From positions 1 through 37,909 of the forward strand of contig NZNM01000129.1 in the NCBI GenBank assembly GCA_002694885.1: a stretch of DNA of 37,909 nucleotides, in the 5' to 3' direction. The position numbers and the translations under genes were made by a program. This DNA comes from Opitutaceae bacterium. Its GTDB lineage: Bacteria; Verrucomicrobiota; Verrucomicrobiia; Opitutales; Opitutaceae. Below the pieces are notes generated by a model that was given only the letters and a program-made list of their open reading frames with translations, was not told the origin of the DNA and ran no database searches. Below are positions 22,812 to 24,907 of this stretch, piece after piece (position 1 is the stretch's first letter; every line of letters begins with the position of its first letter).

Positions 22812-23801
22812 CTATTTCTGCTGGAAGAGAAGGTTCTCTGGAACGTGATGCATGATTCGATCGGCCACTGTCTCGGTTAGATCCTTGTCTAGATCCTCCG
22901 GGTAGCGAACGAGCCCATTCGAAAGTTCGAGATTCCCCATGAATAGCGGTTCTTCCGGATAGAGGCTTTTCATGTTATTGAAAATCGTCTTAGGTGATCG
23001 AAAAACGCCTATTGTAGCGGAATGGATAGCAGATAGCGGTATCTGCTCCAATGTCTCGTCGATAAATGCCCGATAGACTTGTTGGCAATTATCAAAATAG
23101 ATCAATGGATCGAAGCGGAGCCCTATTTTCCAGCCGGCTGAAGCGAGCTTGGCGATTGCTCGCAGACGAGCCGTCAGAGTGGGGGCTTTGAACTCAAGAG
23201 ATTTGGCGACCGAATCAGGACTCAATGTGAATGCGACAACGACGTTTTCGAGAGCCTCTCTTTGTAGAAGAGGAGAGACATTTACGCTTTTCGTTCGCAG
23301 TTCCAAGGTGGCGTTAGGCAGATTCTGGAAAAGGTCGAGGAAATGATTGGCGAAGCCGGTGAGGCTTTCGAGGGCAAGGCTATCGCAGTCGTATCCGCTG
23401 AAGAAGATGCACTGCTCATTGGGATGGGAATTGGCGACTTCTCGGATGTCGGAAACGAAATCTTCGTAGTTTACGAATAAGACGAAGTTGGAAGACCGGT
23501 ACATGCCCTGTAAAAAACAGTAGCGGCAATCGTACAGGCAATTTAGCATATGGGAGAAGTAGTAGTGCCGGTCTGCTCCGATTCCGTATTCAGCGGGAGT
23601 GGGAAGGACTTTCTCCCCTCGCTTTTCCGCGAGAATGAGCGCTGGGTTTGACTTTTGGACACGGAAGTTCTGGCGTTTCGGATTGAATACCTCTCCGTAT
23701 CGCGAGCAACAAATAGCCTCCGCGTTTGGGTAACGCTTTAGCAGATCGATCGTTCGAGGATGATCATGAATAGCGTCCTCTACGTAGATTCGTTCAAACA
23801 T
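22812..23801 (-). CDS. Spore-photoproduct-lyase-like radical SAM protein (329 aa)
   Basis: Predicted radical SAM enzyme of the SPL family, whose founding members use a 5'-deoxyadenosyl radical to reverse the spore photoproduct (a thymine dimer) in Bacillus and Clostridium DNA. The cluster motif C-x3-C-x2-C is at Cys88, 92, 95 (LNCLYDCRYCFLQG). Cys139 in SGYDCDSLALESLT lies about where SPL has its hydrogen-donor cysteine. The residue after the last cluster Cys is Phe96; I recall Tyr there in Bacillus SPL. The following barrel segments (LELRTKSVNV, VAFTLSPDSVAKSLE, GWKIGLRFDPLIY) match the family. It lies 22 bases after the nucleosidase-like gene, as an operon. No sporulation genes are in sight; the substrate is unknown. 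Confidence 0.85.
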   Translation of the reverse strand: MFERIYVEDAIHDHPRTIDLLKRYPNAEAICCSRYGEVFNPKRQNFRVQKSNPALILAEKRGEKVLPTPAEYGIGADRHYYFSHMLNCLYDCRYCFLQGMYRSSNFVLFVNYEDFVSDIREVANSHPNEQCIFFSGYDCDSLALESLTGFANHFLDLFQNLPNATLELRTKSVNVSPLLQREALENVVVAFTLSPDSVAKSLEFKAPTLTARLRAIAKLASAGWKIGLRFDPLIYFDNCQQVYRAFIDETLEQIPLSAIHSATIGVFRSPKTIFNNMKSLYPEEPLFMGNLELSNGLVRYPEDLDKDLTETVADRIMHHVPENLLFQQK

Positions 23802-23823
23802 TCCTATTCGGCCTAAAGACGTG

Positions 23824-24666
23824 CTATCTCAAACAGCGATTTCCTGGGCAAAGGTGTTGAGAAGAAAGCTTGTCTATCTCTTTTTCGATCAAGTCAAAAA
23901 CTCCGCGCTTATCGCGGCCGATGAGTCGATTCGAAAAGTCTTTCCTATCGCTTTCGTCCAGGAGATGGGAGAGTTGCCCGAGCTTCTCGTTCAGCGAGTG
24001 CTTATCGGTCTCTGATAAACGGTGGGTAGATTGAACTTCCAAGCGCGCCACTTTCACCCAATCGCTAATTTCTTCGATTACTTGGTTCTCAAGGGTCTTT
24101 TGAGCGAAGAATTCTATTTGCTCAAGGTGGGTGGCAATGCTTTCGGACACTGCTTCCTTGTCTAGAGTCTTGATTGCGGCATTGGTTGCATTGTCAGAAA
24201 CCGCCTTGAAAACGTGGATGAATTCCAAAGTGGATACTGCCAAAGCGGCGGAATAGAATCCGTAGGCCTCCATGTCGAACAGGCAATTGGGCTGATAGCC
24301 TGTAGAGGGAGCTCTCAGTGTTCGCGTTTCGATGCCGGGCCATGGGGCTCGAGCGACGATCTGGGGGAAGTATACGTCTTTAGAATTATCCGAGCTAACG
24401 CGATTAGCGATAAAGCCGCTTCCGATAGCCGCGTCGCGATGTCCAGCGATTCCAACATTCAACCAGATTTTGCCAGAATTGGGAAATCGACAGGCCAGCG
24501 CGGTCGTTGCTATCGCTGATCGAAGTTCGCCAACTCCAGAAACCACGAGTCGAGCCATATCGTTAGCGAAGAATCGAGCCCGACCATGGCTGCCACAGGG
24601 CTTTAGGCCGTAGCGATGGATGAGCGGACGAGCCTCGCAATCGAGGGCGGTAACGAAATGAATCAT
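23824..24666 (-). CDS. MTA/SAH-nucleosidase-like protein with helical C-terminal extension (280 aa)
   Basis: The N-terminal part (1-163) resembles purine phosphorylase/nucleosidase superfamily members that cleave N-glycosidic bonds of nucleosides such as methylthioadenosine. Support: the initial VTALDCEARPLI (Glu11 in the position of the MTAN general-acid region), VSGVGE, LNVGIAGH, DMEAYGFY with Glu133, and VSDNA with Asp158, the acidic residue that activates the base. Residues 165-280 are charged and helical (KLGQLSHLLDES and similar), not part of the standard fold. ATG 24666 is chosen; a TTG at 24720 would add 18 residues. Pairing with a radical SAM gene suggests removal of 5'-deoxyadenosine or a related product, which is inference. 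Confidence 0.72.
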   Translation of the reverse strand: MIHFVTALDCEARPLIHRYGLKPCGSHGRARFFANDMARLVVSGVGELRSAIATTALACRFPNSGKIWLNVGIAGHRDAAIGSGFIANRVSSDNSKDVYFPQIVARAPWPGIETRTLRAPSTGYQPNCLFDMEAYGFYSAALAVSTLEFIHVFKAVSDNATNAAIKTLDKEAVSESIATHLEQIEFFAQKTLENQVIEEISDWVKVARLEVQSTHRLSETDKHSLNEKLGQLSHLLDESDRKDFSNRLIGRDKRGVFDLIEKEIDKLSSQHLCPGNRCLR

Positions 24667-24907
24667 GGAAGCTGGAATAATTGCTCTTTTTGCCTTGATG
24701 TCATTGTGACGAATGGGCAAAACGCAAGGCTCTCAATTTATCGTAGCTGATAAACCATAGAGATTCCACCTAGGAACCTCGCCCATTTTTAAAGCATATC
24801 AGGCCAGTCATTGGCAGGGTGTGCTTTTTACTCGTTTTTCGGTAGAAAATCCTTGCCGAGCAAACGGCTTAAGGTAGTTTCACGCTCTTTTCTCAAAATT
24901 TCACACC

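What the first reader, a model, noticed from the sequence alone, without database searches (positions are those of the whole stretch)
22812..24666. Nucleosidase-like gene paired with a spore-photoproduct-lyase-like radical SAM gene
The two - strand genes are 22 bases apart, inserted between rpoC and rpsL. SPL-family enzymes generate a 5'-deoxyadenosyl radical; MTAN-type nucleosidases can cleave 5'-deoxyadenosine, a radical SAM by-product and inhibitor. A linked pair suggests a DNA- or nucleoside-repair module in which the nucleosidase clears or processes the nucleoside product. Nothing in the window suggests spore formation, so the substrate is likely not dormant-spore DNA.
Basis: inference. 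Interest (0 to 1): 0.6.

Follow-up and report, generated by a model that had tools for sequence, protein, structure and literature searches.

The report
Radical SAM enzyme paired with nucleosidase
Two neighbouring bacterial genes, one resembling a DNA-repair enzyme of spores and one that cuts nucleosides, turn out to be inherited as a fixed pair across several bacterial phyla, often with a reductase and a sugar-transferring enzyme, and look more like an uncharacterised chemical pathway than a DNA-repair kit.

Summary
Window 22812-23801 (-) encodes a radical SAM protein with the full spore photoproduct lyase (SPL) fold; 23824-24666 (-) an MTAN-fold nucleosidase with intact catalytic residues and extra C-terminal helices. 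They lie 22 bases apart, antisense between rpoC and rpsL, in an Opitutaceae-like genome.

The pairing is real: side by side in all 21 nucleosidase-bearing genomes among 57 relatives; in nine chosen genomes whose SPL-like gene stands alone the nucleosidase is elsewhere; trees of both split alike; Fusobacterium vincentii fuses them. A short-chain dehydrogenase usually follows in the named loci, and one GT2 glycosyltransferase family tracks the pair.

DNA repair is weakly supported: SPL's hydrogen-donor cysteine is tyrosine in 106 of 106 members and the loop carrying Arg304 is missing, although each clade has another conserved cysteine, and recA or mutS lies near some pairs. My best model, inferred, resembles adenosylhopane synthesis: radical adenosylation of an unknown substrate, adenine removal, reduction, sometimes glycosylation. 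Searches showed no description in print. New variant of a known kind.

The parts
22812..23801 (-). SPL-fold radical SAM protein (329 aa); CX3CX2C = C88,C92,C95; 'GYDCDS' motif with Tyr137 at the place of the SPL H-donor cysteine and Cys139 two residues on; Phe96 at the place of Gt SPL Tyr98
23824..24666 (-). MTAN-fold nucleosidase (280 aa from the ATG at 24666); catalytic Glu11, Asp131-Met-Glu133 and Asp158 (numbered from that ATG); residues 202-271 form extra helices at the C-terminus
24667..24720 (-). possible N-terminal extension from a TTG start (MPIRHNDIKAK...); a very similar peptide stands before the nucleosidase in four other genomes of the genus (L016-L019), so it is either coding or conserved leader DNA
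23802..23823 (-). 22-base intergenic gap; over the 21 Opitutales pairs, this one included, the spacing is -200 to +69 bases, mostly overlaps

Best explanation
The two genes are the conserved core of one uncharacterised pathway. SHOWN: the nucleosidase and the SPL-fold radical SAM protein occur together in at least four phyla, often side by side and once fused; a short-chain dehydrogenase (SDR) gene commonly follows, and one particular GT2 glycosyltransferase family tracks the pair. The radical enzyme keeps the cluster motif but lacks the SPL hydrogen-donor cysteine at its usual place. INFERRED: the 5'-deoxyadenosyl radical is consumed, ending up on an unknown substrate as a 5'-deoxyadenosyl adduct; the nucleosidase cuts off adenine, leaving a ribosyl group; where present, the SDR reduces it and the glycosyltransferase decorates it. 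This is the order of steps known for hopanoid side chains (HpnH, HpnG, reduction, HpnI) and, for the first two steps, for menaquinone by futalosine (MqnE, MqnB; recalled).
For: Linkage: nucleosidase in 21 of 57 relatives, all within the 22 of 57 with the radical enzyme, side by side on one strand in 21 of 21. Phylum sample: radical enzyme in 5 of 240, nucleosidase in those same 5 plus one more; two of the five supplied rows of the radical-enzyme model and one a row of the nucleosidase model. Of 14 SPL-like genomes or records searched, 14 carry the nucleosidase: five were known to have it beside the gene, nine (of 62 named loci without a neighbouring nucleosidase) were chosen as the test, and 9 of 9 have it elsewhere. 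Fusion in Fusobacterium vincentii (623 aa). Both trees split the same 43 genomes into the same two clades (100% support, identity correlation 0.78). An SDR follows in 70 of the 77 named loci with a downstream ORF and in L133, L135, L139, L161, L204. The GT2 family exceeds 240 bits in 22 of 34 pair-positive (three of them supplied model rows) and 0 of 8 pair-negative genomes, and is found in 4 of 240 of the phylum sample, all pair-positive (ten or fewer candidates scored per genome). The nucleosidase keeps the AxxxEA-type motif in 43 of 43 and DME in 40 of 43, and lacks about 37 residues that a Vibrio MTAN has between two conserved stretches, as does Chlamydia CT263, which may mean a roomier 5' pocket. 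Precedent for adenosylation, deadenination, ribosyl reduction and glycosylation in hopanoids: PMC12583986 (passages).
Against: No substrate is identified and no adenosylating activity is known to me for any SPL-fold enzyme. Each clade has its own conserved cysteine outside the cluster motif (C139 in 93 of 95 Phe96 members, C229 in 11 of 11 Tyr96 members), and Clostridium acetobutylicum SPL works with its cysteine in another place (PMC5368176 passages), so hydrogen return is not excluded. The window's genus lacks a close SDR, and 12 of 34 pair-positive genomes lack the close GT2, so those steps are optional or replaced. One gut record (L162) has only a 160-aa degenerate nucleosidase between its SDR and radical SAM genes, so cleavage is dispensable there or the record is faulty. 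MqnE matches the model only at the general radical SAM level (Z 12.9 against 31.9 for SPL). Fusion and linkage fit 5'-deoxyadenosine removal equally well.
Confidence: 0.4

Rival explanations
1. The nucleosidase is a dedicated 5'-deoxyadenosine scavenger: it hydrolyses the radical enzyme's by-product on the spot and relieves product inhibition. The radical enzyme uses SAM as an oxidant on an unknown substrate; SDR and GT2 act elsewhere in that pathway.
For: 5'-deoxyadenosine inhibits radical SAM enzymes (PMC8102628, abstract and passages). The nucleosidase keeps the MTAN catalytic residues, and the fused and overlapping genes fit local removal.
Against: The window genome and G007 hold a separate MTA-phosphorylase-like gene (140-141 bits to TIGR01694, below its 274.85 cut-off), and the window genome has 11 other radical SAM matches, 10 above cut-off, but a single nucleosidase of this family. 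The nucleosidase was found in every SPL-like genome tested where it was not a neighbour (9 of 9).
Confidence: 0.3
2. The pair repairs DNA photodamage in vegetative cells: the radical enzyme is an SPL-like lesion reverser, and the nucleosidase processes the nucleoside product.
For: SPL fold over the whole length: Z 31.9, rmsd 2.7, 322 residues, 17% identity, far above the next fold at Z 14.6. Pfam SPL above cut-off. A conserved cysteine in each clade (C139 or C229) could replace the lost donor, as in SPL of C. acetobutylicum. recA about 1 kb away in L135 and L137, mutS about 1.2 kb away in L136, priA in L139 and in a methanotroph cluster (L101), and a photolyase gene beside the GT2 in L202.
Against: Gt C140 is Tyr and the R304 loop is absent in 106 of 106 members; Y98 is Phe in 95 of 106. 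Mutation of that cysteine inactivates B. subtilis SPL in vivo (PMC3742179, passages). The NCBIfam SPL equivalog score is 81 of 400 required. The repair genes nearby differ from family to family and are not in the pair's operon; the constant partners are SDR and GT2.
Confidence: 0.12
3. The radical enzyme modifies a nucleic acid such as tRNA, a cofactor or a protein, and the nucleosidase, through its extra C-terminal helices, is a partner subunit whose catalysis is secondary.
For: Extra helices in the window protein's model and a matching C-terminal region in the family alignment; in L162 the N-terminal catalytic half is gone while a C-terminal remnant stays in frame between SDR and radical SAM genes. 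tRNA-modification genes lie near some pairs: UPF0004/TRAM radical SAM (MiaB-like) in L134 and L135, MnmE in L137.
Against: Catalytic motifs kept in 43 of 43 (Glu and Asp motifs) and 40 of 43 (DME) members; L162 is one unannotated record; the tRNA genes are near only in some Opitutales families.
Confidence: 0.14
4. The pair is a chance neighbourhood without shared function.
For: Nothing found.
Against: and the fusion.
Confidence: 0.02

Closest known systems
Spore photoproduct lyase (SplB; PDB 4FHC, 4RH0)
   Same: Whole fold, CX3CX2C cluster motif, the lysine at Gt K174 (K171 here)
   Different: H-donor cysteine replaced by Tyr, relay Tyr replaced by Phe in the window's clade, R304 loop absent, 17% identity over the structural match; partners are a nucleosidase, SDR and GT2
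MTA/SAH nucleosidase (MTAN, Pfs) and futalosine hydrolase (MqnB)
   Same: Fold, catalytic Glu / Met-Glu / Asp
   Different: About 37 residues fewer than a Vibrio MTAN between two conserved stretches, extra C-terminal helices (about 70 residues), scores far below the equivalog cut-offs
HpnH/HpnG hopanoid side-chain pathway
   Same: Proposed logic: radical adenosylation, removal of adenine, reduction, glycosyltransferase (PMC12583986 passages)
   Different: No NCBIfam match to an HpnH or HpnG model was listed; substrate unknown; no hopanoid link tested
NCBIfam TIGR03886 'spore photoproduct lyase family protein'
   Same: Distant homologue, 70 bits; 10 of 14 plasmid-collection hits bear that name
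   Different: Far below its 437.55 cut-off; the one such locus I opened (Aureimonas) has no nucleosidase annotated beside it

Membership tests
Spore photoproduct lyase | radical SAM CX3CX2C motif | tested here: met
   C88, C92, C95 in 106 of 106 members
Spore photoproduct lyase | SPL fold including N- and C-terminal parts | tested here: met
   Z 31.9, rmsd 2.7, 322 residues aligned to 4rh0
Spore photoproduct lyase | H-atom donor cysteine at the Bs C141 / Gt C140 position | tested here: not met
   Tyr137 in 106 of 106; but each clade has another conserved cysteine, C139 or C229, and C. acetobutylicum SPL has its cysteine elsewhere
Spore photoproduct lyase | relay tyrosine (Bs Y99 / Gt Y98) | tested here: not met
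   Phe96 in the window and in 95 of 106 members; Tyr in 11
Spore photoproduct lyase | loop with Gt R304 (photoproduct contact; that role is recalled) | tested here: not met
   gap at the equivalent Bacillus arginine in 106 of 106 members (seven-residue gap seen); the structure paper is not held
Spore photoproduct lyase | NCBIfam equivalog TIGR04070 cut-off | tested here: not met
   81.3 bits against 400
Spore photoproduct lyase | cleavage of spore photoproduct | not testable with these tools
   needs enzyme assay
MTA/SAH nucleosidase (MTAN) | MTAN fold | tested here: met
   Z 22.0 (2h8g), rmsd 2.5, 193 residues
MTA/SAH nucleosidase (MTAN) | catalytic Glu, Met-Glu and Asp | tested here: met
   invariant columns in A4 and A7; motif counts
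MTA/SAH nucleosidase (MTAN) | NCBIfam equivalog cut-off (NF004079, 169 bits) | tested here: not met
   15.3 bits
Futalosine hydrolase (MqnB) | NCBIfam TIGR03664 cut-off (124.7 bits) | tested here: not met
   19.9 bits for the window protein, at best 47.4 for a relative
Futalosine hydrolase (MqnB) | genome has the other mqn genes | not tested
   no mqn gene searched for in G000
HpnH/HpnG adenosylhopane pathway | match to HpnH or HpnG models | tested here: inconclusive
   no such name among the NCBIfam matches up to E 1; I did not check that the library holds these models; works-like claim only

The most novel reading that the evidence does not exclude
The module is a further, separately evolved radical adenosylation pathway: an SPL-fold enzyme without the usual hydrogen-donor cysteine adds the 5'-deoxyadenosyl radical to an unknown acceptor, followed by a dedicated nucleosidase that removes adenine, a reductase and, in many lineages, a glycosyltransferase, giving a ribosyl- or ribityl-capped metabolite not yet described in methanotrophs, Verrucomicrobiota, Fusobacteria and gut bacteria.
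Probability: 0.28. Interest if true: 0.8.

Novelty: new variant of a known kind. Interest (0 to 1): 0.52.

Why it matters
Annotation models name distant relatives 'spore photoproduct lyase family protein', which invites a DNA-repair reading that several key residues do not support. A pathway with a defined gene set, present in cultured methanotrophs such as Methylobacter tundripaludum, makes the product directly searchable by comparing extracts of deletion strains. If the adenosylation model holds, it adds to the few known cases in which the SAM-derived adenosyl group is built into a metabolite, and does so with an enzyme fold known so far for repair.

Tried and rejected
Led nowhere: viral contigs gave 15 distant radical SAM relatives (23-31% identity), and the nucleosidase profile found nothing in their loci; a second viral scan with the gut protein found no relative. 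PADLOC gave no match for the radical enzyme, SDR or GT2 and only two marginal ones (E 0.005 and 0.009) for the nucleosidase, so I dropped a defence role. The SirB gene near the nucleosidase in methanotrophs and the neighbours of the unlinked GT2 gave no functional lead. G039's distant hit (L030, 458 aa, 25% identity) has no nucleosidase beside it and was left out of the residue counts, trees and adjacency counts. The nucleosidase of G279 (E 7.6e-14) lies near a menaquinone-biosynthesis gene (Pfam VitK2_biosynth), is probably a true futalosine hydrolase and was not counted as a pair. L015 (nucleosidase cut by the contig end) and L162 (degenerate) were left out of the 43-genome trees and of the motif counts.

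Considered and rejected: that methanotrophs lack the nucleosidase. The flanks suggested it, the whole-genome search refuted it for the eight searched. No structure of the C-terminal helices alone was predicted or searched, so their fold is untested.

In one search I chose 9 of the 62 named loci without a neighbouring nucleosidase. The profiles used were built in part from the genomes searched: two of the 5 positives, one of the 6, three of the 14, five of the 14 strong SDR genomes, three of the 22 strong GT2 genomes, none of the 4. The radical enzyme's residues were compared with SPL by sequence alignment, not by superposition. The hopanoid and futalosine analogies are of reaction order, not homology. 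The roles of Gt K174 and R304, of CT263 in the futalosine pathway and of MqnE/MqnB are recalled. Neighbour names rest; any others are by eye.

Full report
What is there. rpsL was sought in eight pair-negative genomes of the same family and found in seven. In four of these (L208, L209, L213, L214) the end of rpoC lies a few hundred bases before rpsL with no pair between; in the other three the 1.5-kb flank shows no rpoC end. So the pair looks inserted into this spot in the window's lineage.

The radical SAM protein. It matches Pfam SPL above cut-off, but NCBIfam's SPL equivalog only at 81 of 400 bits. Its AlphaFold model (pLDDT 88.0, pTM 0.89) aligns to Geobacillus SPL over 322 residues with Z 31.9, rmsd 2.7 and 17% identity, far above the next fold (Z 14.6). 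It is therefore an SPL-fold enzyme. But SPL works through a cysteine that hands a hydrogen atom to the repaired thymine, and a tyrosine that passes the radical back towards SAM (PMC3742179 and PMC5368176, passages). In our protein the cysteine position is Tyr137 and the tyrosine position is Phe96. In an alignment of 106 family members with a Bacillus SplB, Tyr137 stands in 106 of 106; Phe96 in 95 and Tyr96 in 11; and the arginine equivalent to Geobacillus R304 falls in a gap in 106 of 106. That this arginine contacts the photoproduct is recalled; the structure paper is not held. The family has two main clades, one mostly with Phe96 and Cys139 (YDCD; the window's), one with Tyr96 and mostly Thr139 (YDTD). 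Each has its own conserved cysteine outside the cluster motif: C139 in 93 of the 95 Phe96 members, C229 in 11 of 11 Tyr96 members. SPL of Clostridium acetobutylicum works with its cysteine in another place, so a relocated donor cannot be excluded. On balance, photoproduct repair by the known SPL mechanism is unlikely but not ruled out.

The nucleosidase. Its model (pLDDT 88.2, pTM 0.75) is an MTAN fold over residues 1-198 (Z 22.0, rmsd 2.5, 193 residues), with the three MTAN catalytic positions kept: the Glu motif in 43 of 43, DME in 40 of 43, and the aspartate motif in 43 of 43 family members checked. Against a Vibrio MTAN it has 27 residues where that enzyme has 64 between two conserved stretches; against Chlamydia CT263 the match runs through without such a difference. 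CT263 is recalled as the futalosine-pathway enzyme. Residues 202-271 form extra helices that no listed match covers; they were not searched alone.

The pairing. Among 57 relatives the radical enzyme is in 22 and the nucleosidase in 21, all of these within the 22. The odd one is a different, distant SPL relative (L030). In 21 of 21 the genes are neighbours on one strand, spaced -200 to +69 bases. Within the window's family only two genera have the pair, but nine other families of the order do. In 240 genomes drawn across the phylum the radical enzyme is in 5 and the nucleosidase in the same 5 plus one that is probably a futalosine hydrolase; in one of the five the two lie about 2.9 kb apart. 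Of 80 named loci, 18 show the nucleosidase beside the radical enzyme: Opitutaceae, many Gammaproteobacteria and a Myxococcales bin. The others, chiefly methanotrophs, do not, some because the contig ends. I then searched 14 whole genomes or records: five already known to have the neighbouring gene, and nine chosen because they did not (eight methanotrophs and one Verrucomicrobiales bin). All 14 have the nucleosidase; in the nine it lies elsewhere, in one of them (L095) about 14 kb away on the same contig (positions). In Fusobacterium vincentii the two are one 623-aa protein. Trees of both proteins over 43 genomes split into the same two clades with 100% support, and pairwise identities correlate at 0.78. 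Opitutales families fall on both sides in both trees alike, so the pair travelled as a unit. Relatedness inflates such numbers, but the fusion, the concordant clade swap and the unlinked co-occurrence are different kinds of evidence.

The other members. In 70 of the 77 named loci with a downstream ORF, the next gene is a short-chain dehydrogenase, with the Ser, Tyr and Lys of the SDR active site invariant. One also follows in three other Opitutales families (L133, L135, and a weak, extended one in L139), in Fusobacterium (L161) and in a gut record (L204) with nucleosidase, radical enzyme and SDR in overlapping order. A strong SDR match (over 300 bits) was found in 14 of 34 pair-positive genomes, none in the window's genus, and in 0 of 8 pair-negative ones. 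A GT2 glycosyltransferase lies shortly before the nucleosidase in 6 of the 80 named loci, in Opitutales G037 (L140) and in the Myxococcales genome (L201). Elsewhere it is unlinked but tracks the pair: over 240 bits in 22 of 34 pair-positive genomes, including the window's own (contig C140), against at most 131.4 bits in 8 pair-negative ones; the 12 other pair-positive genomes reach at most 174.8. In the 240-genome phylum sample it appears in 4 genomes, all of them among the 5 with the pair (ten or fewer candidates scored per genome). Its best solved relative is chondroitin synthase.

Mechanism. What is shown is a unit of a radical SAM enzyme and a nucleosidase, with a reductase and a glycosyltransferase in many lineages. 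[quoted passage not shown]). In menaquinone synthesis MqnE and a futalosine hydrolase do the first two steps (recalled; MqnE structures appear). I therefore prefer a model in which the SPL-like enzyme consumes SAM and leaves the adenosyl group on an unknown substrate, and the nucleosidase then removes adenine. The chemistry, the substrate and the order of SDR and GT2 are inference. It has to explain why the window genome, with 11 other radical SAM matches and an MTA-phosphorylase-like gene, keeps a dedicated nucleosidase with this enzyme, and why SDR and GT2 go with it.

Results against my reading. The window's genus has no close SDR; 12 of 34 pair-positive genomes have no close GT2, Fusobacterium among them. 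In one gut record (L162) the nucleosidase has shrunk to a 160-aa remnant without the N-terminal catalytic half, between intact SDR and radical SAM genes, so the cleavage step is not needed in every case, or that record is faulty. DNA-maintenance genes lie near some pairs: recA about 1 kb away in L135 and L137, mutS about 1.2 kb away in L136, priA in L139 and in the methanotroph L101, whose homologues make up a cluster seen in 16 named loci; tRNA-modification genes (MiaB-like, MnmE) lie near others (L134, L135, L137). They differ from family to family and I take them as local gene order, but they leave room for the repair and modification rivals. Nothing here identifies a substrate.

Print. Searches for the family name (no paper), for at least two of SPL, COG1533, Gammaproteobacteria and 'uncharacterized' (15 of 1,544 listed), and for at least two of SPL, short-chain dehydrogenase and nucleosidase (15 of 20 listed) showed no paper that from its listing describes this module. 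One genome paper (PMC2628731, passages) treats a COG1533 gene of vent Epsilonproteobacteria as a repair gene by homology. The library lacks most subscription journals.

Verdict. Observation confirmed; repair interpretation weakly supported; a dedicated radical SAM-nucleosidase partnership well supported; its chemistry open.

Noticed in passing
L161:3107-4978: Fusobacterium vincentii: nucleosidase and SPL-like enzyme fused in one 623-aa ORF, followed by an SDR; the 2.1-Mb record is filed as a plasmid but is the size of a chromosome.
   Followed up: partly
L162:3514-3996: Degenerate 160-aa nucleosidase remnant between intact SDR and SPL-like genes in an unannotated human gut record filed as a phage (MT835514); the neighbouring genes look bacterial by eye.
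   Followed up: partly
window:23824-24063 (nucleosidase residues 202-280): Extra C-terminal helices, with a matching region across the family alignment; no curated family matched them and their fold was not searched alone.
   Followed up: no
L023-L028, L161, L162, L164, L165, L204 against the window's clade: The conserved cysteine outside the cluster motif changes place between clades: C139 in most Phe96 members, C229 in all 11 Tyr96 members; a possible swap of a catalytic residue.
   Followed up: partly
L135, L136, L137, L139: recA, mutS or priA within about 1 to 6 kb of the pair in several Opitutales families.
   Followed up: partly
L179-L182 and L184: In 5 of the 9 stretches around the unlinked nucleosidase (8 methanotroph, 1 Verrucomicrobiales) a SirB-family gene lies next to it.
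   Followed up: no
L186:421-1437 (G000 C140): The window genome's unlinked copy of the pair-tracking GT2; in four genomes of the genus (L186, L187, L188, L199) a gene of one cluster, a 3-keto-disaccharide hydrolase family gene where scanned (L186), follows on the opposite strand.
   Followed up: partly
window:24667-24720: Peptide MPIRxNDIKxK before the nucleosidase ATG is conserved in five genomes of the genus, on the DNA upstream of rpsL on the other strand: coding extension or shared leader.
   Followed up: no
window:22772-22801: GC-rich inverted repeat followed by a T-run between rpoC and the pair, by eye a terminator for rpoC (sequence printed).
   Followed up: no
L030:1309-2685: A 458-aa distant SPL relative in G039 with a different N-terminal part and no nucleosidase beside it.
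   Followed up: no
L135:8565-9722 and L139:5623-7116: SDR proteins with long low-complexity lysine- and proline-rich C-terminal tails in two Opitutales families.
   Followed up: no
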